Virus record (IMG/VR): IMGVR_UViG_3300017991_000120
Location: 1-59,822 of that record
DNA length: 59,822 nucleotides
Reading direction: 5' to 3' (one strand)
Origin: a virus
Below are positions 4,581-56,593 of this stretch, piece after piece (within the stretch, counting starts at the first letter, position 1; each line of letters starts with the position of its first letter). The notes below the pieces were generated by a model. That model did not search any database. It was not told the origin of the DNA and saw nothing but the letters and a program-made list of their open reading frames with translations. A program made the translations under genes and the position numbers.

Positions 4581-6041
4581 ATGAAAATTTTAAATTATGA
4601 GATCACAAAGGCCGGTACTATCAAGGGTCTTCAATCCGATAGCGATAAATTAAAAAGGATTGAAAGCCAATTGGTACGCAAAATGATTGGGCGCAAGATG
4701 GGGCAGGTTTCCTATCATAACACCCAAGCGGCAACACCTTTTTTGGGTCAATACTATCCCGGGACGACCAATTTATCACTTTATCGGATTATCCGTGAAA
4801 TTGTCAGCTTCTTGGATGTGGCGGTTTTAAAGCTCGGATTATATGTTGGCGATTTTGAGGTTTACTCTGATAACGAACGAAGCCAAGATGCGCTGAGGGA
4901 TTTTAAAGACAATGTCAAAGTCAATTATTTTAGCAGAGGGTTAAAGGAATTCCTTAAACAAATGATTGAGTCAACACTTGCACTTGGAATGGGTATTGGC
5001 GAACGTGTGGACAACGGTAGTCTATTTGGGGAAACGCGCCTGTTCAATGGCAATGCGGAATTTCTTCGGTTTATTCCTGACAAGCAAGAAGGTATCGTTC
5101 TTGGGTATCAGCCCACAGGCGTATTCCAACCAAAGCCGTTTGAAAACCCTGACAATGTCTATTTTTTGGCATTTGACCAGCGAGACGGAAATCCGTGGGG
5201 ATATTCCATTTTTAATTCGCTGAACTTTGTTGCCCGAATTTACACACGTTTAAATGAAGCCCTTCATAATCAGGCGTGGAGGATTGGGGATCCAATATAT
5301 TTTACAATGGTAATGGGTGATAGCGATGACGCGGAACAGGAATTGGCTGAGGATATTAGTAATAATATCAAAGATCAATTTGAAAGCGTAAGTGCCCTGA
5401 AAGCGCAAGGCGAAGTTGGCGATATGCATATCTGGGGGCCGTCCGGTTTTGACATTAAGATTAAGATGTTGGGTGCCGATGGTGAGACGCAATTGATGGA
5501 TTTTGAATTTCCCTCGCGTATGGTTATTGAACAAATGACTGCCAAATTACTTTTGCCGCCGTGGGACTATGGCCTTTATAACTGGAATTCAAACTACAAA
5601 ATGTCTGACGCCCAACAGGACGCCTTAAAAAGTGTTCTTTGGGGCTATCGTGAGAAAATCAATCCTCACATTGAGGACATAATTAATAAGGAGTCTGTCA
5701 AAGCTGGTTTTGTTGGAACGCCTTGGCGTCACGTGTGGAATGATATTGACTTTACGGATCGCGCGGATCGCGCAAAAGCTGCCCACTTGGAAGCGTCAAC
5801 ACAAGAAAAGTTGGTTGGCAATCAACTAACCATTTGGGGGATGGGTATAATTGATGATGAACAATTATATGACAATCTTACTAATATTGGAGTGGTGGAT
5901 ATTGAGGCCAGCAATAAACAAAAAGCCATTGAAAACCTACATATTTACCGTAAATTGCTCCTCTTGCAACCTGCCGGCGACGTCGCATTAGGCAAGACGA
6001 GGTTTGAGCTTGTGCGGGCAATTATGAATGACGAGGAGTAG
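4581..6041 (+). CDS. Portal protein
   Basis: 486 residues between terminase and the Mu F-like head protein, the usual portal position. The central part (FAFDQRDGNPWGYSIF and later MVIEQMTAKLLLPPW) has the pattern of DUF935/Mu gp29-type portals, including the long C-terminal helical region (SDAQQDALKSVLWGYREKINPH). It forms the dodecameric vertex through which DNA enters. The start ATG follows AAGGACT weakly; no better start is near. Confidence 0.8.
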   Translation: MKILNYEITKAGTIKGLQSDSDKLKRIESQLVRKMIGRKMGQVSYHNTQAATPFLGQYYPGTTNLSLYRIIREIVSFLDVAVLKLGLYVGDFEVYSDNERSQDALRDFKDNVKVNYFSRGLKEFLKQMIESTLALGMGIGERVDNGSLFGETRLFNGNAEFLRFIPDKQEGIVLGYQPTGVFQPKPFENPDNVYFLAFDQRDGNPWGYSIFNSLNFVARIYTRLNEALHNQAWRIGDPIYFTMVMGDSDDAEQELAEDISNNIKDQFESVSALKAQGEVGDMHIWGPSGFDIKIKMLGADGETQLMDFEFPSRMVIEQMTAKLLLPPWDYGLYNWNSNYKMSDAQQDALKSVLWGYREKINPHIEDIINKESVKAGFVGTPWRHVWNDIDFTDRADRAKAAHLEASTQEKLVGNQLTIWGMGIIDDEQLYDNLTNIGVVDIEASNKQKAIENLHIYRKLLLLQPAGDVALGKTRFELVRAIMNDEE

Positions 6042-7407: not shown

Positions 7408-7697
7408 ATAGGCGCGGTTTTTTAGGAATGATTGCCGCTTGTGCAGTCCCTATCTCAAAAAAAGAGCCTACAATGCCAAGTCCCGAAGGCTTTAATATTC
7501 CTCCAAATGCCAATCGATTGTGGTATATAACAAATTATGTCACCATACCTAAAACGAAAATTCCTACCTATGGTTTTTCGATTACGGAGGATCAATACTA
7601 TGCCAACGAACCGTGGTTTCAAGACTGGACAAATAAATGCGTGGACGCCATGCAAGGGAAAGGCACTAAGGCCATAATTGCTTTGACATTAGTTTAA
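7404..7697 (+). CDS. Small exported protein with Tat-like signal and lipobox-like Cys
   Basis: 97 residues from the ATG overlapping the previous stop. The N terminus reads MNRRGFLGMIAACAVP: twin Arg, Phe-Leu in the Tat consensus positions, and AAC as a possible lipobox. The mature part (~75 residues, aromatic-rich) is not recognised. Tat-type signals are rare in phages. Possible roles are superinfection exclusion or envelope modification. The hydrophobic region is short, so the signal call is tentative. Confidence 0.55.
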   Translation: MNRRGFLGMIAACAVPISKKEPTMPSPEGFNIPPNANRLWYITNYVTIPKTKIPTYGFSITEDQYYANEPWFQDWTNKCVDAMQGKGTKAIIALTLV

Positions 7698-7705
7698 AAA
7701 AGTTC

Positions 7706-7734
7706 TTGCAATTACAAGATTTTATTTGTAAAAT
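7706..7734 (+). promoter_or_regulatory. Sigma70-like promoter of the RNA island
   Basis: TTGCAA, 17-base spacer, TAAAAT, preceded by AAAAAAGTTC. It matches the A-tract/(G)TTCTTG promoters at 39294 and 45106, and those with operators. Predicted start is about 7741, exactly at the first base of a 14-bp hairpin. Confidence 0.7.
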
Positions 7735-7740
7735 CCAAAC

Positions 7741-7893
7741 GTAGGTTAGAGAGGAAAATCCTTCCAACTGCCCCGTTGTTAGCTTCTCACCTTTCTGACC
7801 TACATTTTGCGGCCATTCAATTAATTCAATTTATTAATTGGGCGCTGAAAATTACACGAATTACGCAAAGGGCGTGGCCGCCGCCCTTTTTTT
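7741..7893 (+). ncRNA. Structured ncRNA, ~153 nt, promoter to intrinsic terminator
   Basis: Between the promoter at 7706 and a terminator there is no convincing gene. The arms 7741-7754 and 7790-7803 pair over 14 bp (two G-U). CAATTAAT/ATTAATTG forms a second hairpin within 7815-7838. AAAGGGCG (7867-7874) pairs with CGCCCTTT (7882-7889), followed by seven T. This could be a free small RNA or a leader with an attenuator for the gene at 7907, whose ribosome binding site lies directly after the T-run. No known RNA family was recognised. Confidence 0.6.
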
Positions 7894-10327: not shown

Positions 10328-10342
10328 TCATTGGAGGAAACC

Positions 10343-11527
10343 ATGACGCCTAAAAAACTCGCCATTTTGGTGACAACTGTTGTGGCAATTGTTATTATCG
10401 CCACATTGAGTTCAAGTATTCTTGAAACCAATGAGTCAGGTTATTTTCAAATCAAACAAGCTGCTATCACTGGTGATATGTCGGTGCGCTTTTCGGAAGG
10501 AACCTACTTTCAATGGTTTGGCAAAATCTCGCCTTACAAAAACGTCGCAACCGTTGGGATTGGTAGTGAAAAAGGAGAGGGCAGTGCAGACATTGAAGCC
10601 GTTCCGGTTATTTTTAATGATGGCTCCAAAGCTGAAATCTCCGGCCTTGTACGTATCAAATTGCCTAACACCGAGGAAGATGCTTTGCGCCTAAAACAGG
10701 AATATAGTGGTGGATTTGAGCACTTTATTCGTTCCGGTGTGGTGCCGATTGTTAATAATGCCGTCAAGCTGTCGGCCAACTTGCGTTCCGCGCAGGATGC
10801 CTATACCACTCTCGCTTTGTTCCAACAAGCTGTTGATGATCAATTGCGCAATGGTATCTACATTACAAAGTCCGACAAGGTTGAAATCGAACGGAGCACT
10901 GGTGAACGAGAGACCCAACGTGTAACCGTTATTGATTATGATGAAAACGGTCAGCCTATGCGGATGCCAAACAGACTGCAGGAACTTGGCTGTGAAGTCC
11001 TTGAATGTGTTATTGACGTGCCTGATTTTGATCCCAAAGTTGAAGAAATGATTGCCGCACGTAAGGACGAGGCAATGAAAACGGAACTGGCAAAACAAGC
11101 CGCGCTCCGCGCTCAACAGGATGCCATCACCGCCGAGGAACAAGGAAAAGCCAATGTGGCTACAGCCAAGTATGAAAAAGAAGTTGAAAAGGTTAAAGCT
11201 GTCACGGATGCGGAAAAGACCTTTGAGGTTGAAGCTCTTAATGCGAAAAAGGCAATTGAAACAGCCAAGAAAATTCGCGCTGAGGGCGAGGCACAAGCCG
11301 CCGCAAACCGCGCCCTTGTCTCTGCTGGATTGACTCCTGAGCAAAAAATGGAAATGCAAATCAAAATCGCAGATGTGGTATCAAAGAATATTGCGAACGC
11401 GCCTACTCCGCAGGTTGTTATTGGTGGAGGTGCCGGCGGTGCAACGGACGATCTTATGCAGGTCTTTGGGGCTGAACGCGCCATCGAGCTTGTTAAAAAG
11501 TTCGGCGTTGACATAACTGGTAAATAA
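10343..11527 (+). CDS. SPFH/band 7 (prohibitin/stomatin-like) membrane protein
   Basis: 394 residues; ATG after GGAGGAAACC. Architecture: N-terminal membrane anchor (~residues 5-24, LAILVTTVVAIVIIATL), an SPFH domain (~30-220, including GYFQIKQAAITGDMSVRF), then a long Ala/Glu/Lys coiled coil (~235-330) and a Gly-rich tail (IGGGAGGATDDL). SPFH proteins oligomerise into membrane-associated rings and scaffold proteases or lipid domains. In phages their role is not settled: host membrane remodelling or protection from proteolysis has been suggested. A terminator follows directly. Confidence 0.8.
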   Translation: MTPKKLAILVTTVVAIVIIATLSSSILETNESGYFQIKQAAITGDMSVRFSEGTYFQWFGKISPYKNVATVGIGSEKGEGSADIEAVPVIFNDGSKAEISGLVRIKLPNTEEDALRLKQEYSGGFEHFIRSGVVPIVNNAVKLSANLRSAQDAYTTLALFQQAVDDQLRNGIYITKSDKVEIERSTGERETQRVTVIDYDENGQPMRMPNRLQELGCEVLECVIDVPDFDPKVEEMIAARKDEAMKTELAKQAALRAQQDAITAEEQGKANVATAKYEKEVEKVKAVTDAEKTFEVEALNAKKAIETAKKIRAEGEAQAAANRALVSAGLTPEQKMEMQIKIADVVSKNIANAPTPQVVIGGGAGGATDDLMQVFGAERAIELVKKFGVDITGK

Positions 11528-39946: not shown

Positions 39947-41488
39947 ATGAAGGATTTCTTGGAACTCGTCGATTTTGACCAAATGCCTGATTTGTCGAAC
40001 TTCGTTAATTCCTTGCAAAGCATAGCGAGAGCGACGCACCACGAGGATAAAGATGAAGTCGAACAGGCGTTGATTAAACGTCACCAAGAAATGTTCCTTG
40101 CCGACCGAGGCGTCTATACCTTGCTTTTGAGTTTGGCGGGATCAGAAAACCACATCACCACAGGCGTTGGGCTTTTATTCGGTCTACCGGATGAGGGCTT
40201 GAATATGCCAAAGTCTTTGGAGACGTTGATCATCAAGGACTTGCTTAAACGTGTAAAAATCACTCAACTCCTACGGTTTTATGTGGACTTGGCCGATGCC
40301 AAAATTAATAACAACCGCGCGCGAAAAGTGATACTCCGCTCGTTTTTTGATGCTGAGGAAAAAGACTTGACGTGGTGGGCTGTTAAGTACAAAACCAAAC
40401 TTCGCTATATCATGAACCACTTTGTGGGAAATGATCAGATTGGCTATGTTATTTCCATTGCCAAACGGTATGCAACGGAAAGAATGTGTCTCCCCGATGA
40501 TTGGGCAAAGGTTGCACGGTTGCTCTTTATGTCCAAAGAGATCCAAGGGTGGCACTTGGAAACCATCGCATTTATCAACAATGTCAATGGCGTTTATTCT
40601 TCACCACTGTTCCGTGCCTTTCAGGAAGCCAAGCGAGATATTACCAAAGGCGCATCATTGCCGCCGGAGGTATTGGAAGGTATTCGATCCGTTTACCATC
40701 CAAGCGTTCCACATGCCGAGGTTTTAAAGTTGACAGCAAAATCGGCCACAAAACAGCAAACAGTTCGCAAGCAACGGGAATATGAAAAGGCTGGTGTAAA
40801 GGTTGATGCCAATTGGGATTCGATGGCGATGCATGAATTGATCAAAATTGTTTACGAATGGCATAAAGACAAAAAACCACTGCCCGAAGATATTATGACC
40901 GTGCTCCACAACAAGGCAAAAAAAGTTGGTGGTGAGCTTAGCTTCCAAGCTATAAAGGCCGGTATTTTAGTAGACAATTCGTTTAGTGGAAGCGGTGATC
41001 AAGAGACCGCTTTGAACGATCCTATTTCAAAAATACTGTCCTTGCGGTATGCGTTGCAGGAATATTTCCACCAACAAGAAATACCTTTTGTCACGGAGTT
41101 TGTCACACAAGGTCGAAACAATTATGGTCTGCCTGTTGTCGCAGGAGAAACCGATTTGGCAACACCGTTTATTGATTTGGTCTATGAGGATTGTGATGTC
41201 ATTTATGTATTGTCCGATGGACGTGACAATGCTCCTGCAGGACGGCTCCAAGAGGTTATTGGACAGTTAAGGTTAATCAAAAAACTGCCTACTGTTTACC
41301 ATTTCAATCCTGTTACCGGTGGAGAGTCGATTGTTAAGTTGGATAAGGATATTCCTACCGTTGGCTATGCCAAAGCCGAAGGTTTTCAACGGACTGTCTT
41401 TGCAAGTATTTTGGTCGCTGAACCAAAAACAGCATTGGCACAGATTCTCAACGATTACAAGTTATTGGCAGAAAGGAGTTCCAAGTGA
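39947..41488 (+). CDS. Ro60-like protein (TROVE HEAT-repeat ring plus vWA)
   Basis: 513 residues, the usual length of Ro60/Rsr. The N-terminal ~330 residues are helical HEAT-like repeats (NNRARKVILRSFF is typical). The C-terminal third is a von Willebrand A domain: GILVDNSFSGSG supplies the DxSxS metal site, GETDLATPF the Thr, and VIYVLSDGRDN the conserved Asp. Ro60 rings bind misfolded RNA and Y RNAs, and in bacteria connect to exoribonucleases. The three Y-like RNAs lie directly upstream, as in many bacterial Ro loci. AGGAG is weak here (CACGGAGGTACAA), but well placed. Confidence 0.82.
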   Translation: MKDFLELVDFDQMPDLSNFVNSLQSIARATHHEDKDEVEQALIKRHQEMFLADRGVYTLLLSLAGSENHITTGVGLLFGLPDEGLNMPKSLETLIIKDLLKRVKITQLLRFYVDLADAKINNNRARKVILRSFFDAEEKDLTWWAVKYKTKLRYIMNHFVGNDQIGYVISIAKRYATERMCLPDDWAKVARLLFMSKEIQGWHLETIAFINNVNGVYSSPLFRAFQEAKRDITKGASLPPEVLEGIRSVYHPSVPHAEVLKLTAKSATKQQTVRKQREYEKAGVKVDANWDSMAMHELIKIVYEWHKDKKPLPEDIMTVLHNKAKKVGGELSFQAIKAGILVDNSFSGSGDQETALNDPISKILSLRYALQEYFHQQEIPFVTEFVTQGRNNYGLPVVAGETDLATPFIDLVYEDCDVIYVLSDGRDNAPAGRLQEVIGQLRLIKKLPTVYHFNPVTGGESIVKLDKDIPTVGYAKAEGFQRTVFASILVAEPKTALAQILNDYKLLAERSSK

Positions 41489-42504
41489 CTGAATTAAAAC
41501 GTTTTTTCCAAGATTTGACGCTTGGCCGACCTCAAAATGTTGGCCCAATAACAGTCGTCCCGTTGATCTCGGATCAACACTTTTCGTTCCAAAAACCACG
41601 TCACGAGGATGTGAGCAATAGAGGCTATGGAAATTTGATGTTCAAAAATAGCACTCCTGATCCTGTTTTGGTTCCTGCTCACACGGTTTACATGACAAAG
41701 CGACAAAGCCAAGACCATGCGACAATGGAGGGCTTGATTGTTAAAAAAGGTGAGACGTTGGATTATTGTAAGGCAACGTGCGTCCAGCAATCAACTGGTG
41801 GAATGATGACCGGAAGCCAAGAAAAGGTTGAAACAACTTTGCCAATTATTTTGCGCGAACGTGCATTTAACAAACGCGAAAACACCGGAGATTCAACAGG
41901 GTACGGACGCCTTTGGAATGACATCACCTCGTATAATGCGGGGTATGGAATCCGTGGTTCCGGTGGCGGCCATTACGAATATTTCTATGACGCCTTTGAG
42001 AAAACGATGGATGAATTCGTCGCTGAATTTGAGCTTGTTTATAATCAAGTGGGATTCATTGTTTTTGCCAAAAATATTGTTTATGGCATTGAGCGGTTTC
42101 CATCACCCGGATATTTGAAAAGTTATTACCGCTCACTGATCAAAGGATGTTATGGCGCGGCTATCATAGACCTTTTGCGCCAAGCCGACGAATTGCAGTT
42201 AAAAGGAACAATCAACGTTCCTGTCAATATGTCGGGAAGTGTCCGCGAATTAAAGCGCAACCTTGCACGAGCCAATGAACGTTTCGATGGGCGTGTAAAG
42301 GATGTCGTTACGGAATTAATTTTTGGAGATCGAGGAAAATTTGAGAAGTCAGCACAAGGGCATCAGACGGATTTTATGCTGTTTGAAAATGACTTCTTTG
42401 TTGGCAATGTCCTCGTCCAAGCGGACGGTTATCCATACTTTACTTTCGTCGCACGTGAGGCTCAATTGAAAGGTGTACGTGCAGGGAGAGAATTCAAAAT
42501 TTAG
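41485..42504 (+). CDS. Ro-coupled protein, ARPP-1/DUF6569-like (tentative)
   Basis: 339 residues. GTG overlaps the Ro60 stop (GTGA), so translation is coupled. The N-terminal part (ITVVPLISDQ, then NSTPDPVLVPAHTVYMTKRQSQDHA, then KATCVQQSTGG) has the order of the ARPP-1 domain: a PL strand, a V-x-V-P/loop with QxQ/QN, then C-V-E/Q. The C-terminal ~200 residues are unassigned. Coupling suggests it works with the Ro ring and its RNAs. Family placement is by pattern only. Confidence 0.5.
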   Translation: MTELKRFFQDLTLGRPQNVGPITVVPLISDQHFSFQKPRHEDVSNRGYGNLMFKNSTPDPVLVPAHTVYMTKRQSQDHATMEGLIVKKGETLDYCKATCVQQSTGGMMTGSQEKVETTLPIILRERAFNKRENTGDSTGYGRLWNDITSYNAGYGIRGSGGGHYEYFYDAFEKTMDEFVAEFELVYNQVGFIVFAKNIVYGIERFPSPGYLKSYYRSLIKGCYGAAIIDLLRQADELQLKGTINVPVNMSGSVRELKRNLARANERFDGRVKDVVTELIFGDRGKFEKSAQGHQTDFMLFENDFFVGNVLVQADGYPYFTFVAREAQLKGVRAGREFKI

Positions 42505-42538
42505 TTGACTTCTATGAATTCTTTACCTACCTTTTGTT

Positions 42539-42658
42539 ACCGCGTTGCGGTTCCCTCTTTGGGTGGCATTGGTCAGGCAAAGCCTATGCCGCCCTATTTT
42601 GATAGGGAAGTCGCACCTTCTTTCTGCTGGCTTTGGAGCAATCCAAAGCCTTTTTTTT
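42539..42658 (+). ncRNA. Structured 3' region of the Ro operon with terminator
   Basis: ACCGC-GTT-GCGGT, TTCCCT/AGGGAA enclosing GGGTGGCAT/ATGCCGCCC with an inner AGGC/GCCT, and finally GGCTTTGGA-GCAA-TCCAAAGCC with eight T (42629-42658). The last element is a strong terminator; the rest is more structure than a simple 3' end needs. The open frame across it is not protein-like. Confidence 0.6.
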
Positions 42659-42713
42659 GCCCAAGTCCCACTACAAAAAAAGTAAAAAAAAACAAAAAAA
42701 TGCAAAATTTTTC

Positions 42714-42742
42714 TTGCTATTTACGTATATACACTGTATATT
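42714..42742 (+). promoter_or_regulatory. Rightward early promoter with operator (site 4)
   Basis: TTTTTC, TTGCTA, 17 bases, TATATT, with the palindrome ATATAC-ACT-GTATAT at 42727-42741. GTTAA follows at 42750. It is the only rightward copy of the operator promoter and drives the early block from 42781. Confidence 0.85.
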
Positions 42743-42780
42743 GAAATAGTTAAAGAAAGCAAATTTAGAGGAGATGAAAG

Positions 42781-43125
42781 ATGCATGAAAAAAAATATGA
42801 AACGATACAGTCCGAAAAGACAATGAAGTCGATGTATTGTGGCAGATGTGGCGAGATTATTTTAATCCGATCCGATTGGGATTTCGAAGATATTGCAAAG
42901 GCAGCCCAAGAACAATGCGAAACAGAATGTGATCATTATTTCTTGTTCAAAACGTTTCCTGAAATCAAGCGCGAAATCCGCTGTGAAATAAAACGCAATA
43001 CAGTCAACACCGACGTTCGTCAACTTCCTGAAAATCATTTCAGAGATTTACTTGTAAGTTTGCATAAAATGCCACTCGAAGATTTAGTCGAATACGGCCA
43101 CAACCTAAACAAACGTTCTAACTGA
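42781..43125 (+). CDS. Zinc-ribbon-containing early protein
   Basis: 114 residues. MYCGRCGEIIL (~19-29) and a later C-x3-C pair (EQCETECDHY) suggest a zinc site. GAGGAGATGAAAG precedes the ATG. First gene behind the rightward early promoter; function unknown. Confidence 0.6.
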   Translation: MHEKKYETIQSEKTMKSMYCGRCGEIILIRSDWDFEDIAKAAQEQCETECDHYFLFKTFPEIKREIRCEIKRNTVNTDVRQLPENHFRDLLVSLHKMPLEDLVEYGHNLNKRSN

Positions 43126-43136
43126 GGAGACCTAAA

Positions 43137-43382
43137 ATGTCAGCATCAAAACAAAATCAAACCGAAGAAGATGGCCGCTGTTTTTCAGCATATTACGGCG
43201 ACGACGATTTCGAAGAAGAAGCCGAATTCGATTTTGAGACTGAGGATTTTTGGGAAGCCTTCGAAAACGGTCGAATTGGTGTTAACCCAACGTCCTGCAA
43301 GTTTGGTGAAAGCGCAGATATTTTCGATGTATACGAACAAGTAAAGTTCGACGAAAACATTCACAGTCAATTAAATTTTTAA
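43137..43382 (+). CDS. Small, very acidic early protein
   Basis: 81 residues with 22 Asp/Glu against 5 Lys/Arg, concentrated in EEEAEFDFETEDFWEAFE. Size, charge and early position resemble DNA-mimic anti-restriction or anti-host proteins, but no family is recognised. AGGAGACCTAAA precedes the ATG. Confidence 0.55.
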   Translation: MSASKQNQTEEDGRCFSAYYGDDDFEEEAEFDFETEDFWEAFENGRIGVNPTSCKFGESADIFDVYEQVKFDENIHSQLNF

Positions 43383-43450
43383 GAGGCCCAACCGGATTTG
43401 ACGTGGGGTGGATCGGAAGTTGACGCTCATTTACCACAGTAAAAAACAAC

Positions 43451-43473
43451 GGTGCCCGCACGAGGTGGGCACC
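43451..43473 (+). other. GC-rich hairpin between early genes
   Basis: GGTGCCC/GGGCACC with a 9-base loop, no T-run. It lies in the 117-base gap before 43500 and may stabilise the downstream message. Confidence 0.5.
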
Positions 43474-43499
43474 ATTAATCCTATATAGGAGATATTATT

Positions 43500-44153
43500 A
43501 TGAACGACGATGGAATGGAATTCAACATGTCTGCAATGCTCGGAATTGGTGGTGGCCGCCCATGTGGTCTCGGTGCACTTCTTTCGGGTCTGTCCTCAAC
43601 GCAGGAACCGCACGATGCAAATGATACGCTGAATGACATTGCCGCATCTATTGTTGGCGATGTTCGTGAACACAACTGGATTGATTTGGATGTTGCCTTG
43701 GAGGAGTTTCAACTTTTTGTAAAGTCCAACAAAAAGACTTGGAACAGCTTTTCGCATCGTGACAAAATCCACTTCATATTCAAATATCTGCAACGCGCAG
43801 GAGTCCTTGTCAAGGAGGATTTTATGTGTTGTCAAGAATGTAGTCACTATGCCATTCTGAAACAGATGATAATGCAAAAACGCCATCCTTTGAAAACAAC
43901 GATTATCTACTATACCCATCCGTCCGCGAATGAAGCGTTTGACTTCAACGGCAACATTGACACGCCGGAAGGTTTGCGAATGGCGCATCATTTCGGTGAA
44001 GACAACGACGACATTAAGGATCAAGTTTTCAAATTTTTCGAAGCCGCCGGAGTTGAGGCAACATGGGCAGGACATAACCATGTGATGTTTGTTGAAAACA
44101 GTTCATCACTGGAAGAAATCCTCAACAATGACAATGACGAAGAATCCAAATAG
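43500..44153 (+). CDS. Hypothetical early protein (DUF6891-like)
   Basis: 217 residues. FMCCQECSHYAI (~residue 105) followed by IIYYTHPSANEAF and AGVEATWAGH resembles DUF6891-type proteins of unknown function. N terminus Gly-rich (LGIGGGRPCGLGALLSG). AGGAG precedes the ATG. Confidence 0.5.
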   Translation: MNDDGMEFNMSAMLGIGGGRPCGLGALLSGLSSTQEPHDANDTLNDIAASIVGDVREHNWIDLDVALEEFQLFVKSNKKTWNSFSHRDKIHFIFKYLQRAGVLVKEDFMCCQECSHYAILKQMIMQKRHPLKTTIIYYTHPSANEAFDFNGNIDTPEGLRMAHHFGEDNDDIKDQVFKFFEAAGVEATWAGHNHVMFVENSSSLEEILNNDNDEESK

Positions 44154-44218
44154 TTGAACCGCAACCGGCCTCGCCAAGGGGTCGGTTTACTTTAATTTTA
44201 GCAGAAAGGAAACGCGAA

Positions 44219-45049
44219 ATGTTAGAAAAAGTTGATCCCGTTGAAGTCATTATGCACAAAGCCTTATCAAACGATGAGATCATTCAACGTGCGCCAAGCG
44301 TACTCACACGCGAGGGAATGCCGGAAAAGACCCATAGTGCCTACGTCAATGTTTCTACAATGGATGTGATTGAAGTTATGCGTAACCAAGGATGGATTCC
44401 AACACTTGCTGGACAGCAAAAAGTCCGCGTTGGTGAACGTTCGGGCTATCAAAAACACATCGTAAAATTGTCCAATCCCAATCTTGTAATTGGCCCCGAT
44501 CACCTTCAAGCTATCATAACCAACTCCCACGACGGAGGGTCGGCCTACAAATTCGATCTTGGAATTTATCGCTTTGTCTGTTCAAATGGAATGATTGTTG
44601 GAAACACCTTTGAAAGTATCAATATTCGTCACATTGCAATTTCAACAGATGAGGTCCTGCAGGCCAGTCAGTCCATGTTGGACTTTGCTCCACAAGTCGC
44701 TAATCAAATTGAATCGATGAAGTCCACACGCATGACATCACCAATGAATCGCGCCTTTGCTCGTGCGTCTATGCTTTTGGTGTATGGAGAGGATGGTGAT
44801 GGTGGACGTTGGCCTTTTGATCCCGGCGAACTTCTCCGTATTCGTCACGAGGAGGACAGGAAAGATCATTCACTTTGGACATCATATAATGCCGTTCAGG
44901 AAAACATCATGAAAGGCGGTATTGAATACAAAACAGAAAAAGGACGTGCAATGAAAACGCGCCCTGTCAAAGCCATTGATCGTCACGTGAACCTTAATAA
45001 AGCCCTTCACTCCCTTGCAACGGAAATGGCTGAATTAGCCGCTAAATAA
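44219..45049 (+). CDS. DUF932 family protein
   Basis: 276 residues. The central part (NSHDGGSAYKFDLGIYRFVCSNGMIVG, seen as NSHDGG, YRFVCSNGM) is the DUF932 signature found in many phage and plasmid proteins of unknown function, often near recombination genes, as here. AAAGGAAACGCGAA precedes the ATG. Confidence 0.8.
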   Translation: MLEKVDPVEVIMHKALSNDEIIQRAPSVLTREGMPEKTHSAYVNVSTMDVIEVMRNQGWIPTLAGQQKVRVGERSGYQKHIVKLSNPNLVIGPDHLQAIITNSHDGGSAYKFDLGIYRFVCSNGMIVGNTFESINIRHIAISTDEVLQASQSMLDFAPQVANQIESMKSTRMTSPMNRAFARASMLLVYGEDGDGGRWPFDPGELLRIRHEEDRKDHSLWTSYNAVQENIMKGGIEYKTEKGRAMKTRPVKAIDRHVNLNKALHSLATEMAELAAK

Positions 45050-45063
45050 CACTTCTGTTGATG

Positions 45064-45090
45064 GCCCCGCTATCCGGCGGGGCTTCTTTA
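45064..45090 (+). terminator. Intrinsic terminator after the DUF932 gene
   Basis: GCCCCGC-TATCCG-GCGGGGC followed by TTCTTTA. It separates the first early transcript from the tRNA-Lys promoter. Confidence 0.75.
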
Positions 45091-45105
45091 TGACCAAAAA
45101 ACTTC

Positions 45106-45134
45106 TTGTAATTTTTAAAAAATGTTTGTAAACT
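45106..45134 (+). promoter_or_regulatory. Promoter of tRNA-Lys and the recombination genes
   Basis: AAAAAACTTC, TTGTAA, 17 bases, TAAACT; no operator palindrome. Predicted start about 45141, 12 bases before the tRNA. Confidence 0.75.
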
Positions 45135-45152
45135 GTAGTCAAGAAATTTTTA

Positions 45153-45226
45153 GGAACCGTGGCAGAGATGGTCAATGCACCGGACTTTTAATCCGGGTTT
45201 TTTGGGTTCGAGTCCCAACGGTTCCA
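45153..45226 (+). tRNA. tRNA-Lys(TTT)
   Basis: Acceptor GGAACCG/CGGTTCC, anticodon stem CCGGA/TCCGG with loop CTTTTAA (anticodon TTT), T arm TTGGG-TTCGAGT-CCCAA, discriminator A. CCA is not encoded. Confidence 0.93.
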
Positions 45227-45257
45227 CGCGTCCAATATTACCTTTTAAGGAGGCAAT

Positions 45258-45488
45258 ATGTCTTACGTTGATCAAAAGGCCAAGCCAGTCATGGTATCGG
45301 CCAAAACACACCTTTTCCTACTTGCTATGGCAAAAGAGGAAGGCAGGGCCATTGGCGCGATGTGCGAAAAGTTTCTCGTCAACCATATTGAGGACTTTTT
45401 GAAAGAAAATCACATCTCGGACAATACATGGGAAAAGGTTGCACGACGTCTTAAACTTCCAATCGAAGAAGTTAAAACGGAGTGGTAA
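45258..45488 (+). CDS. Small ribbon-helix-helix-like protein
   Basis: 76 residues. KPVMVSAKTHLFLLAMAKEEG fits a short strand followed by helix 1, then EGRAIGAMCEKFLVNHIEDF as helix 2. Arc/CopG-like folds use this pattern for operator binding. AAGGAGG precedes the ATG. Another candidate regulator. Confidence 0.5.
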   Translation: MSYVDQKAKPVMVSAKTHLFLLAMAKEEGRAIGAMCEKFLVNHIEDFLKENHISDNTWEKVARRLKLPIEEVKTEW

Positions 45489-45511
45489 TCACATAACAGA
45501 AAGGAATACCT

Positions 45512-46177
45512 ATGGGAACTGAAAACGCGGTTGCTTTGCCAGCAGACGTTCAACAATTTTGGGTTGACGTCAAGCATAGTGAAAAGCAAATTACGGACAT
45601 CACTGTTACGGCAGAAAATAAGGGTGATGTCAACGACTTTGTCGTAGCCCTCAAAAAAATCCGCACAAAAATCAATGCCGCCAAAGTCGGGGTGGGAAAA
45701 CCATTTGACGAACAAAAACGAGAAGCTCAAAAGCCTTACAAGGATTTATTTGACAAGGTTGAGGAGATTATCAAACTCGGTGAAGGCAAGGTAACAGAAT
45801 TCATCAAAGAGGAACGGCGTTTAGAAGCGGAGCGGCTCCTTGAACAGAAACAGCAGGCATCAAAATCATTAGAGGAACAAAAACTTGAAGCCATTGAAAA
45901 CAATGATTTTGAAACCGCCCAAAAAATTGAGGGCATGATTCAACGTCCACAAGCTCCGTCGGTTCCTCAAACGAGGGTTAGGACGTCAAACAGTACCACA
46001 GCCGAAAAGAAAGTGGTCACCATTATTTCGGTTGATTTAAACAAAGTTCCTGACAAGTATATCAAAAAGAGTTTGGATGAAGCTGTTGCCAAAAGAGATT
46101 TGGCCGCAGGTCTTACCATTCCCGGTATTCAAGCGTCAGTGGACACTCAATTTTCAGCACGAGCAAGGAGGTCTTGA
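45512..46177 (+). CDS. Coiled-coil protein of the recombination set (DUF1351-like)
   Basis: 221 residues. A long charged coiled coil (~residues 75-145, EERRLEAERLLEQKQQASKS) with a C-terminal globular end. Proteins of this kind commonly precede the phage exonuclease and annealing protein genes, as here. It overlaps the nuclease ATG by one base. Confidence 0.6.
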   Translation: MGTENAVALPADVQQFWVDVKHSEKQITDITVTAENKGDVNDFVVALKKIRTKINAAKVGVGKPFDEQKREAQKPYKDLFDKVEEIIKLGEGKVTEFIKEERRLEAERLLEQKQQASKSLEEQKLEAIENNDFETAQKIEGMIQRPQAPSVPQTRVRTSNSTTAEKKVVTIISVDLNKVPDKYIKKSLDEAVAKRDLAAGLTIPGIQASVDTQFSARARRS

Positions 46178-46971
46178 TGAAAATAGAACACCTAAGTCCA
46201 TCATCATTTAATATGATGATCAGGTGTGGTATGCAGTGGTTTTTCCGTTATGTTGAAGGATTAAAACGACCGCCCGGCGTGGCACTGGTCATTGGTACTG
46301 GCGTTGACAAGGGCGTCAATCTTAACATGGAACAAAAAATGGAAACGGGAAACCTTGCGGAACTGGCTGAGGTAAAGCAAAAGACCTTTGAAACGGTTGT
46401 CAACACTTTTGAGATGTCAGAGATTGCACTTGATGACGATGAAAAGAAAAAAGGTATGCAAAAAGTAAAGGACGAAGCTGCCGACATGGCTGTATCTTTG
46501 TCAGCCGTTCACTATCAAAAGGCCGCCCCTAAAATCTTTCCGGTTGCCGTCCAAGAACGTTGGGAGCTTGAAGTCGACGGTTATCCATTTGAAACATTGA
46601 TGGGCATTATTGACATCTCTGAAACCAACGTTGTCCGTGATACCAAAACAACAAAGCGGAGTCCATCGGGAGGCGAGGCTGATAAGTCCGATCAATTAAA
46701 CTTCTATGCCTATTATAAAAAAGTGGCTGAGGATAAAAATGTGGAAACCGTTCTTGATTTTCTTGTGAAATTGAAAACGAATCCTAAATTTGTACCAGTC
46801 TATACAAGTCGTCCACACACGGATGAGGACTTTAATCGTCTTTGGGAAAAAATTGACGCGGTGTCACTCGCCATCGAAAAAGAAGTTTTTCTCCCAACAT
46901 TGCCAGACAATTGGTGGTGCTCTCCAAAGTGGTGTGGTTACTATGATGTCTGTAAATTTGCAAGGAGGTAA
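46177..46971 (+). CDS. PD-(D/E)XK nuclease (Cas4/RecB-like)
   Basis: 264 residues; ATG after AAGGAGGTCTTG. LSPSSFNMMIRCGMQWFFRYVEG is the N-terminal S-x-C-x-x-x-x-F-Y signature. MGIIDISE and VVRDTKTTKRS supply the catalytic D...D-x-K, and QLNFYAYYKKV the following Q-x-x-x-Y. Late cysteines (WWCSPKWCGYYDVCK) plus the early Cys could bind an iron-sulfur cluster as in Cas4. Probable 5' exonuclease for phage recombination. Confidence 0.85.
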   Translation: MKIEHLSPSSFNMMIRCGMQWFFRYVEGLKRPPGVALVIGTGVDKGVNLNMEQKMETGNLAELAEVKQKTFETVVNTFEMSEIALDDDEKKKGMQKVKDEAADMAVSLSAVHYQKAAPKIFPVAVQERWELEVDGYPFETLMGIIDISETNVVRDTKTTKRSPSGGEADKSDQLNFYAYYKKVAEDKNVETVLDFLVKLKTNPKFVPVYTSRPHTDEDFNRLWEKIDAVSLAIEKEVFLPTLPDNWWCSPKWCGYYDVCKFARR

Positions 46972-46972
46972 G

Positions 46973-48127
46973 ATGCCTGAATTAAAGCCTACCCTGCCAA
47001 CTATTGGTCAGCAAGTTCCGGCCAATATTGGCGAAAACGAACTTAACCAAGTGAGTTCTATGTCGTCCGCTATGGTTGAGATTCAATCAGCGATTATGGT
47101 TGCCAAAGGCATGCCCCGAAGTGAGGACGTGGCTTTTGATCGTTTGATGCGGGCGTGTAAACGTCCAACTTTTGCCGATAGTGCTGAATATCAGTACCCG
47201 CGCGGTGGTGCAACCATTGTTGGCCCCTCTGTTAATCTCGCACGTGAAGCCGCACGATGTTGGGGAAATATCCGCTATGGCCTTGAAATTGTCCGCGACA
47301 CTGAGGATGAACGGCAAATAAGAGGTTGGGCGTGGGATATGGAAACCAACGTAAAGGTTGAGGCAGAGGATGCGTTCAAAAAACTTATTTACCGCAAGAC
47401 CAATGGCGGTGAATGGATTAAACCGGATGAACGCGAATTGCGTGAACTTACAAATCGGCGCGGTGCCATTGTCACACGAAATGCAATTCTCCAAGTTCTG
47501 CCTCGAGACCTGATTGAAGATGCTCAAAATAAATGCCGTGATACCATTAAAGCAAAAATTACCGAGGATCCCGAAGCCGCACGGAAACGCATTATCTTAG
47601 GCTTTCAGGAACTTCATGTAAGTGCTAAGAATATCGAGGCATTCTTAGGTCACGAAATTTCGGAATGTTCTCCGAAGGAACTGCAAAACCTGCGTTCCAT
47701 GTATCAAGCTATTCGTGATGGTGCCGCTAAATGGACGGACTTTGTTGAAGCCAAGGATGATTTGAAGGCTGACAATAAAGCCGACGAGAAAAAGCAAAAG
47801 CCCAAAGCCCGTGCGAGAGTCAGGAAGTCAAAAGCTGAAAAGAACGAGAAGTCCGAACCGCCAACGCCAACGGAGCCGCCGGCAGAGAAACCAAAGTCAA
47901 ATGGTAACGGCAATGGTGGATCAACTTCACAAATTAAAGGCCAAATCATTTCAATTATGCACAAATGGCCGGAACAGCAAAAGATGAATTGGATTGGAAG
48001 TGAAGGCTTTGAGTCCGTTAATGACTTACTGGCTTCCGTGTCGGATGTGAATTCTGTTGTCAAGCTGTTGGACAAGGTTAAAAAGCAAAACCAAAACCTT
48101 ATTGATGATGGATTTTTGACAAAGTAA
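46973..48127 (+). CDS. Probable single-strand annealing/recombination protein
   Basis: 384 residues from ATG after AAGGAGGTAAG. The core (ATIVGPSVNLAREAARCWGN, later RGAIVTRNAILQVLPRD) is globular. Residues ~265-320 are a Lys/Pro/Glu-rich linker and a small C-terminal domain follows. Its place directly after the exonuclease suggests a RecT/Erf-like annealing role; no signature of those families is clear. Confidence 0.5.
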   Translation: MPELKPTLPTIGQQVPANIGENELNQVSSMSSAMVEIQSAIMVAKGMPRSEDVAFDRLMRACKRPTFADSAEYQYPRGGATIVGPSVNLAREAARCWGNIRYGLEIVRDTEDERQIRGWAWDMETNVKVEAEDAFKKLIYRKTNGGEWIKPDERELRELTNRRGAIVTRNAILQVLPRDLIEDAQNKCRDTIKAKITEDPEAARKRIILGFQELHVSAKNIEAFLGHEISECSPKELQNLRSMYQAIRDGAAKWTDFVEAKDDLKADNKADEKKQKPKARARVRKSKAEKNEKSEPPTPTEPPAEKPKSNGNGNGGSTSQIKGQIISIMHKWPEQQKMNWIGSEGFESVNDLLASVSDVNSVVKLLDKVKKQNQNLIDDGFLTK

Positions 48128-56246: not shown

Positions 56247-56582
56247 ATGTTTATCACTTGCAAGACGTTGGAAGTGGCAGGGAGCCATTCCTTGAAATTG
56301 GATTACGGTAGTCCTTGCCAAAGAGTGCATGGTCATAATTGGATCATAAAGGTGTGGTGCCGTTCGGAAAGTGTCGACAAAAACGGCATGGTGGTTGATT
56401 TTTCCAAGGTCAAGAAAATTGTCCATGGCACCTTGGATCATGAAAATATTAACGAAGTCGTAGACTTTAATCCGACGGCTGAAAACATAGCCTATTGGAT
56501 TGTTCAGGCGGTTCCATTCTGTTTTAAGGCAGAGATTTGGGAAAGCCGTGACAATTATGCCTGCTATGAAAAACTTTTATAA
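56247..56582 (+). CDS. queD: 6-carboxy-5,6,7,8-tetrahydropterin synthase (QueD)
   Basis: 111 residues from the ATG after AAGGAG (an upstream ATG at 56226 lacks a site). Motifs: GSHSLKL (zinc His), CQRVHGHNW (catalytic Cys and two zinc His), TLDHENIN, PTAENIAYWI and a Glu in WESRDN. It converts dihydroneopterin triphosphate to carboxy-tetrahydropterin, the second step to 7-deazaguanines. Followed directly by queE and folE. Confidence 0.92.
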   Translation: MFITCKTLEVAGSHSLKLDYGSPCQRVHGHNWIIKVWCRSESVDKNGMVVDFSKVKKIVHGTLDHENINEVVDFNPTAENIAYWIVQAVPFCFKAEIWESRDNYACYEKLL

Positions 56583-56593
56583 TGGAGGTTGAA

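What the first reader, a model, noticed from the sequence alone, without database searches (positions are those of the whole stretch)
39947..42504. Two-gene Ro operon with an uncharacterised coupled partner
The Ro-like protein has a full vWA metal site. The downstream gene overlaps by GTGA and shows ARPP-1-like order of motifs. Phage Ro proteins exist but their function is unknown; a fixed partner would give a handle. Possible roles: protecting or degrading tRNAs cleaved by host defence nucleases, or remodelling host RNA decay.
Basis: partly seen in the sequence, partly recalled or inferred. Interest (0 to 1): 0.72.

Follow-up and report, generated by a model that had tools for sequence, protein, structure and literature searches.

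The report
Phage Ro RNP with sealed tRNA-mimics
A phage carries a distant relative of the RNA-binding Ro protein, paired with a second protein of unknown chemistry and, in most related phages, with small RNAs that look like whole transfer RNAs cut open at an unusual place and sealed at their working end, which suggests a viral RNA-protein machine that mimics tRNAs.

Summary
The two overlapping genes are real. 41485..42504 encodes an ARPP-1 (PF20208) protein. 39947..41488 matches no library family, but profile-profile comparison and a fold search place its family with TROVE/Ro60, with a complete vWA metal site.

The pair is conserved: 13 of 13 further viral contigs, an Alkaliphilus plasmid, cyanobacteria (the same 12 of 194 genomes carry both) and other bacteria. 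ARPP was not seen beside canonical phage TROVE genes.

The main find lies outside the stated coordinates. The 0.5 kb just upstream of the Ro gene holds two tRNA bodies that a linear ARAGORN search misses because they are circularly permuted: Leu(UAG) and Thr(CGU), each with the acceptor stem sealed and the anticodon arm intact, hung on long outer stems. Similar arrays lie beside the pair in 9 of 13 phage loci scanned, with compensatory changes in their stems. They are best read as Y RNAs (YrlA-like) with a whole tRNA body.

Most likely this is a phage Ro ribonucleoprotein: Ro holds the stem, the sealed tRNA body serves as bait or tether, and ARPP-1 is the coupled enzyme. Function is inferred. 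New variant of a known kind.

The parts
39423..39472 (+). Hairpin unit 1: GGTTGTTATAG ... CTAAAAAGCAACC closing stem, no tRNA body
   Evidence: Repeat copies D1 and D6; pairing
39466..39771 (+). Y-RNA-like unit 2: long outer stem (39466-39473 with 39764-39771; 39499-39510 with 39723-39734, 12 bp) around the Leu body
   Evidence: Helix list; fold z -3.97, 0 of 100 shuffles as good
39528..39700 (+). Circularly permuted tRNA-Leu(UAG) body: T arm 39533-39549, acceptor 3' strand 39550-39557, 93-nt linker, acceptor 5' strand 39651-39658, D arm, anticodon arm 39678-39694; opened in the variable region
   Evidence: ARAGORN on joined ends: tRNA-Leu(tag) in 318 of 360 junctions, structure, cluster of 149 segments against at most 6 in 5 shuffled windows
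39765..39876 (+). Y-RNA-like unit 3: closing stem GGTTGTT/AACAACC around the Thr body
   Evidence: Repeats, global fold
39776..39858 (+). Circularly permuted tRNA-Thr(CGU) body, opened in the D loop, acceptor sealed by a UUCG loop, anticodon arm 39790-39806
   Evidence: ARAGORN on joined ends: tRNA-Thr(cgt) in 196 of 575 junctions, structure; Rfam tRNA at 30.0 bits, gathering 29
39937..39943 (+). Ribosome-binding-like GGAGGTA before the Ro start codon
   Evidence: Sequence
39947..41488 (+). Divergent Ro (TROVE-like) protein, 513 aa: helical ring part plus vWA domain with MIDAS D343-x-S345-x-S347, T402, D424
   Evidence: hhalign with TROVE 96.7%, E 3.3e-10; model pLDDT 75.3; Foldseek and VIA best hits Ro60/TROVE
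41485..42504 (+). ARPP-1 domain protein, 339 aa, GTG start overlapping the Ro stop; C99 and C222 invariant in 16 of 16
   Evidence: PF20208 E 2.8e-24; invariants

Best explanation
The locus encodes a phage Ro ribonucleoprotein of three parts. (1) A divergent Ro ring protein. (2) An array of Y-RNA-like RNAs transcribed just upstream, whose long paired ends are the Ro-binding handle and whose head is an almost complete tRNA, circularly permuted so that its acceptor stem is closed by a loop; as long as it stays closed it cannot be charged or trimmed from a 3' end, but it still shows T, D and anticodon arms. (3) ARPP-1, co-translated with Ro, as the catalytic or RNA-end-handling partner. Most likely the sealed tRNA heads act as tRNA mimics during infection: they engage host factors that recognise tRNAs, above all anticodon-cutting defence nucleases (decoy), or they tether a tRNA-binding nuclease to Ro as YrlA tethers PNPase to Rsr. 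Shown by computation: the Ro family and its metal site, ARPP-1 membership, conservation of the pair, the permuted tRNA bodies and covarying stems. Inferred: transcription, binding of the stems by Ro, any activity of ARPP-1, and the decoy role. My confidence is about 0.85 for the composition and about 0.35 for the decoy role taken alone.
For: Ro: 96.7%, E 3.3e-10, 389 columns; each half alone E 1.7e-5; 12 shuffled or reversed decoys E 0.16 or worse. ARPP-1; 7 of 7 viral partners tested. Pair: 22 of 22 first loci, same 12 of 194 cyanobacterial genomes, 13 of 13 new viral contigs. Permuted tRNAs; 9 of 13 phage loci, 16 clusters against 3 clusters in 26 control loci. Both-sided changes in 12 of 36 and 15 of 29 pairs of the two body types, five sequences each. 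Sealed permuted tRNA heads go with Ro genes in phages generally: 21 of 45 against 3 of 73, Fisher 3.5e-8. YrlA precedent: PMC8394870 passages. Competitive-inhibitor remark for YrlA and an anticodon nuclease: PMC7790460 passages.
Against: No Pfam TROVE match in any of 16 members; the window protein alone, or only three phage/plasmid rows, does not reach significance against TROVE. 4 of 13 phage loci show no permuted body near the pair; LR756500 has unpermuted tRNAs with a D-arm insert instead. Bacterial pairs show none in 22 loci scanned, apart from one weak cluster about 3.3 kb away in L014. Some relatives have weak anticodon arms, which speaks against a strict decoy. The window's third repeat unit has no tRNA body. 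No expression or binding data.
Confidence: 0.6

Rival explanations
1. RNA-decay remodelling: the Y RNAs gate Ro and tether a host exonuclease such as PNPase, so that the phage redirects decay of structured RNA. The tRNA head is only a docking module and the anticodon is incidental.
For: This is what YrlA and Rsr are described to do in bacteria (PMC8394870), and it was proposed for a Listeria phage (PMC12282133). Most UUCG-sealed phage Y-RNA-like elements have no clear anticodon arm: 36 of 45.
Against: Does not explain why both window bodies keep a full anticodon arm, nor the ARPP-1 partner, which was seen in 0 of 45 loci of the ordinary kind.
Confidence: 0.3
2. Genuine permuted tRNA genes: the precursors are circularised by an unknown splicing step and cut at the acceptor to give working Leu and Thr tRNAs, as in algae and one archaeon. 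Ro and ARPP-1 would help folding or joining.
For: ARAGORN accepts the joined bodies as full tRNAs; anticodons differ between relatives; permuted tRNA genes matured through a circle are known (PMC3978253 abstract). LR756500 has D-arm inserts whose removal restores tRNAs.
Against: Acceptor caps are very short (UUCG in Thr, 4 to 10 nt in many relatives), leaving little room for leader and trailer; large outer stems and the link to Ro genes fit Y RNAs. No RNA ligase or splicing endonuclease among the 30 window proteins scanned.
Confidence: 0.1
3. ADP-ribose signalling or repair: ARPP-1 processes ADP-ribosylated RNA or protein, and the Ro-like vWA protein is its chaperone, as proposed for ARPP in ARG-centred systems. 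The RNAs nearby are incidental.
For: ARPP was defined in ARG-centred systems, which often carry predicted chaperones including vWA domains, and is predicted to act on ribose (PMC9503650 section 3.8). LR756500 has a macrodomain-like ORF about 3.5 kb beyond its pair (recognised by eye).
Against: No ARG, rhodanese-phosphatase, Nudix or WYL protein among the 30 window proteins scanned. Does not explain the tRNA-like arrays beside the pair in 9 of 13 phage loci.
Confidence: 0.15

Closest known systems
Ro60 / Rsr (TROVE, PF05731), including the Ro60 of Thermus phage phiLo (PDB 9l5y)
   Same: Helical ring plus vWA domain with a full metal site; colinear profile match; best structural hits, Z 15.1 over 403 residues to 9l5y; RNAs with tRNA-like heads beside the gene
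   Different: About 12% identity, not found by the TROVE model in 0 of 16 members; always beside ARPP; own subfamily in large phages, plasmids, cyanobacteria and other bacteria
YrlA-type bacterial and phage Y RNAs
   Same: Long stem of paired ends and a head with T, acceptor and D arms (PMC8394870); sealed acceptor and swapped halves also in phage elements beside TROVE genes
   Different: Head keeps a complete anticodon arm in both window bodies; opened in the variable region or the D loop; tandem arrays; the partner Ro is the ARPP-linked subfamily
ARPP-1 of ARG-centred systems (PF20208, PMC9503650)
   Same: Same domain, E 2.8e-24; an invariant cysteine (C99 in 16 of 16), and a glutamine two residues on in 13 of 16
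   Different: Coupled to Ro instead of ARG, HIRAN, WYL or deacetylase genes named in PMC9503650
Circularly permuted tRNA genes of algae and an archaeon
   Same: 3' half encoded before the 5' half (PMC3978253 abstract)
   Different: Acceptor closed by a short loop in most members, large outer stem, beside a Ro gene, in phages

Membership tests
TROVE / Ro60 | Match to the TROVE model PF05731 | tested here: not met
   0 of 16 members; none in the record
TROVE / Ro60 | Homology over both the helical ring and the vWA domain | tested here: met
   hhalign E 3.3e-10 over 389 columns; each half E 1.7e-5 with controls
TROVE / Ro60 | Ro fold | tested here: met
   Foldseek ranks 1-8 all Ro60/TROVE; VIA Z 15.2 over 405 residues against 13.2 over 177 for the best other entry; model of middling confidence
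TROVE / Ro60 | Binds Y RNA and misfolded RNA ends | not testable with these tools
   Needs binding assays
ARPP-1 (PF20208) | Score above the curated cut-off | tested here: met
   86.4 bits, cut-off 27
ARPP-1 (PF20208) | Conserved cysteine and glutamine | tested here: met
   C99 in 16 of 16, Q101 in 13 of 16 (E in the three copies of one phage); that these are the residues meant in PMC9503650 is my inference
ARG-centred immune system | ADP-ribosylglycohydrolase and phosphatase beside ARPP | tested here: not met
   None among the 30 window proteins scanned
Y RNA (YrlA type) | Beside a Ro gene | tested here: met
   39423-39876, Ro at 39947
Y RNA (YrlA type) | tRNA-like head on a stem of paired ends | tested here: met
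Y RNA (YrlA type) | Transcribed and bound by Ro | not testable with these tools
   No expression data
Functional permuted tRNA gene | Bulge-helix-bulge junction and tRNA splicing machinery | tested here: inconclusive
   No ligase or splicing enzyme among 30 proteins scanned; the junction was looked at by eye only
rsr-yrlBA-rtcBA RNA repair operon | RtcB and RtcA beside Ro and Y RNA | tested here: not met
   No RtcA/RtcB among the window proteins scanned near the pair, 38489-48124

The most novel reading that the evidence does not exclude
An undescribed kind of phage counter-defence particle: a divergent Ro protein packages arrays of end-sealed, circularly permuted whole tRNAs with interchangeable anticodons, which act as decoys or inhibitors of host anticodon nucleases, while the invariably coupled ARPP-1 enzyme modifies or captures tRNA ends or ribose.
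Probability: 0.28. Interest if true: 0.92.

Novelty: new variant of a known kind. Interest (0 to 1): 0.77.

Why it matters
The function of phage Ro proteins is open. This gives them a fixed protein partner (ARPP-1, itself without a known activity) and a defined RNA partner, so that both orphans become testable together. If the anticodons matter, it would be an RNA-based way for phages to blunt tRNA-cutting immunity.

Tried and rejected
Direct family searches for the Ro-like protein in Pfam, PHROGs, NCBIfam and PADLOC gave nothing. PDB sequence search gave nothing for the protein and only noise for its profile. Single-sequence searches of viral contigs with either window protein found no relative; alignments did.

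The ARPP-1 model (pLDDT 46.9) was too poor to search with. Two early folds cut through the outer stem and gave z -1.45 and -0.93; I set them aside once the boundaries were known. Rfam found no Y RNA family in the window; only the tRNA model touched the Thr body. A group I intron in permuted order was considered: no Rfam match even at E<=5. The 829-nt gap before the Alkaliphilus Ro gene holds a strongly folded RNA (z -7.84), but no permuted tRNA was found there, so I do not call it a Y RNA. A first test for anticodon arms, 3' of the D arm, gave 1 of 45 and looked on the wrong side for the common class; the corrected test gave 9 of 45. In the permuted scans intact linear tRNAs give false clusters, hence the masking. 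Of the 16 clusters, the Gly cluster of L193 (3812-3901) looks like a fragment of an ordinary tRNA, and the window's Thr body was merged into the Leu cluster. From 47 sealed stretches I dropped 2 that lie in two tandem linear tRNAs. For the control I used the first 26 unsealed loci of at least 7 kb out of the 73 unsealed loci; at least one of its 3 clusters (L083) looks like a true sealed body.

Full report
What was checked. The two ORFs named in the finding are present and overlap by GTGA. The record is a 59,822-base virus contig with a capsid gene. The downstream protein is ARPP-1, PF20208, E 2.8e-24. The upstream protein has no significant match in Pfam, PHROGs, NCBIfam or PADLOC, and no TROVE match exists in the record.

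Is it Ro? I collected relatives: LR756500.1, a 462-kb phage record, 29.9% identical; an Alkaliphilus plasmid and three Nostoc plasmids; cyanobacterial contigs. A 16-row alignment was compared with 14 TROVE proteins from cyanobacteria; that reference profile finds Ro60 and Rsr in the PDB at E 4.4e-139 or better. hhalign gives 96.7% and E 3.3e-10 over 389 columns. Each half matches its counterpart at E 1.7e-5; cross-matches of the halves give E 0.051 and 0.18; ten column shuffles and two reversals give E 0.16 or worse. But P0006 alone (0.3%) and three rows alone (7%) do not reach significance, and none of the 16 members hits PF05731. The AlphaFold2 model (pLDDT 75.3) has Ro60/TROVE chains as its eight best Foldseek hits (E 3.2e-5 to 3.6e-3) and VIA Z 15.2 over 405 residues to 9kop and 15.1 over 403 to 9l5y, the Ro60 of Thermus phage phiLo. 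I conclude that it is a distant Ro, outside the reach of the TROVE model. The five metal-site residues are identical in 16 of 16.

Is the partner fixed? In 22 of 22 first loci an ARPP ORF follows on the same strand (L001 and L022 are the same phage). In five of these about 0.8 to 1.1 kb lies between the genes, annotated as XisH/XisI in the two that I saw annotated. Of 194 cyanobacterial genomes, 12 hold the Ro-like gene and the same 12 hold ARPP-2; in 10 the two are neighbours on one contig, in G095 and G118 they are on different contigs. Two sets of 12 in 194 coincide by chance with probability 2.4e-19, a figure that ignores kinship. In a second phylum sample 9 of 282 genomes have the Ro-like gene; 7 of 8 loci show ARPP beside it, the eighth being cut by the contig end. 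An alignment search of viral contigs found 14 loci, 13 of them new. All 13 have ARPP-1 next to Ro at E 3e-63 or better; three of them are the same phage. Pfam confirms ARPP-1 for 7 of 7 partners tested. By contrast, no ARPP was found in 45 loci with UUCG-sealed RNAs (21 of them with canonical TROVE) or in 73 others (3 with TROVE), although many of these stretches are short. So ARPP-1 goes with this Ro subfamily. Published ARPP contexts (PMC9503650, section 3.8 read) do not include Ro. My paper searches for ARPP together with TROVE, Ro60 or Y RNA terms showed no paper linking them (listings only, open-licence library).

What lies upstream. Between the previous gene and Ro there are 788 bases with no long ORF. 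They contain three copies of GTTGTTATAG and tRNA-like pieces in the wrong order: a T arm and acceptor 3' strand at 39533-39557 come before the acceptor 5' strand, D arm and anticodon arm at 39651-39694. ARAGORN finds nothing there linearly. If the ends of the segment are joined it reports tRNA-Leu(tag) for 318 of 360 junctions, and for the next segment tRNA-Thr(cgt) for 196 of 575. A scan of the whole window gave clusters of 149 and 41 segments for these two; the other clusters lie at the four intact tRNAs, on the same bodies under other anticodons, or are single hits, and five shuffled windows gave no cluster above 6. The Leu acceptor (8 bp) is sealed through a 93-nt linker, the Thr acceptor by UUCG. 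Both bodies sit on long outer stems: 39465-39770 folds at z -3.97, the 611-nt region at z -4.42. Failure on the linear sequence and success on the joined one is the signature of circular permutation.

Are these RNAs conserved? With linear tRNAs masked, 9 of 13 phage loci scanned around the pair (window, L189-L196, L199-L201, LR756500) hold permuted bodies, 16 clusters in all, against 3 clusters in 26 control loci of 229,830 bases. L189, L191 and L192 repeat the window's order: one body opened in the variable region, then one or two opened in the D loop. Their outer stems start with GAGGACT or GCGGACT, up to four times before the Ro gene. Consensus folds of five members of each type show changes on both sides in 12 of 36 and 15 of 29 pairs; some members are close relatives (Ro 77-81% identical) and five sequences are few. 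In LR756500 the bodies are not permuted: two tRNAs upstream of Ro carry an insert in the D arm, and leaving out 64 or 70 nt restores Ser(UGA) and Leu(UAG) (none in 10 shuffles). I read these inserts as the same stem in the other topology, an inference from the shared ends (ATTACAG there; GTACAG in L189-L195).

What they resemble. YrlA is described as a stem of paired ends bound by Rsr and a head like the D, T and acceptor arms of tRNA that binds PNPase (PMC8394870, passages). Y RNAs have been predicted in mycobacteriophages and are suspected near a Listeria phage Rsr (PMC12282133, passages). The original YrlA papers were not held, so I could not check how far the sealed acceptor is described there. 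47 were sealed by 5 bp or more; of the 45 kept, 21 have a TROVE gene in the stretch against 3 of 73 unsealed ones (Fisher 3.5e-8). So sealed permuted tRNA heads mark phage Y RNAs in general. Special here are the kept anticodon arm in both window bodies (found in 9 of 45 of the others, 11 of 900 shuffles), the tandem array, and the Ro subfamily with ARPP-1.

Mechanism. Shown: architecture, conservation, covariation. Inferred: that Ro binds the outer stems, that the sealed heads mimic tRNAs in the cell, and that ARPP-1 handles RNA ends or ribose. The decoy reading rests on the kept anticodon arms, on the variety of anticodons (Leu UAG, Thr CGU, Trp CCA, Phe GAA, Tyr GUA, Ile UAU among the bodies; [quoted passage not shown] Against it, some relatives have weak anticodon arms. 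The decay-tether reading remains open.

Limits. The viral records may be fragments. The window's relatives are distant (about 30% identity). ARPP-1 could not be modelled. Bacterial pairs show no permuted tRNA in 22 loci scanned, apart from one weak Thr cluster about 3.3 kb away in L014, so the RNA part is established for phages only.

Noticed in passing
L001 (LR756500.1) 4863-4995 and 5254-5395: Two tRNA genes 2.5-3 kb upstream of the Ro-ARPP pair carry a 60-70 nt insert in the D arm ending in ATTACAG; standard finders miss them.
   Followed up: partly
L069-L188 (viral contigs): At least 45 UUCG-sealed, permuted tRNA-like elements in phage contigs, 21 with a TROVE gene in the stretch; likely unannotated Y RNAs.
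   Followed up: partly
L002 (Alkaliphilus plasmid) 7564-7800: A strongly folded RNA (z -7.84) with a hairpin and U-run after it, between a TerD gene and the Ro gene.
   Followed up: partly
L004 7118-7857 and L005 7139-7878: XisH and XisI genes sit between the Ro-like and ARPP-2 genes on Nostoc plasmids.
   Followed up: no
L005 5626-7083; L006 7108-8292: The Ro gene of one Nostoc plasmid and the ARPP-2 gene of Nostoc foliaceum are each split into two ORFs.
   Followed up: no
window 56582-59539: Radical SAM, GTP cyclohydrolase I and QueC genes in a row, as for 7-deazaguanine synthesis.
   Followed up: no
window 10331-11527: A Band_7 (SPFH) domain protein close to three tRNA genes.
   Followed up: no
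window 44219-45049; L001 2777-3646: A DUF932 protein lies within about 5 kb of the Ro-ARPP pair in both this phage and LR756500.
   Followed up: no
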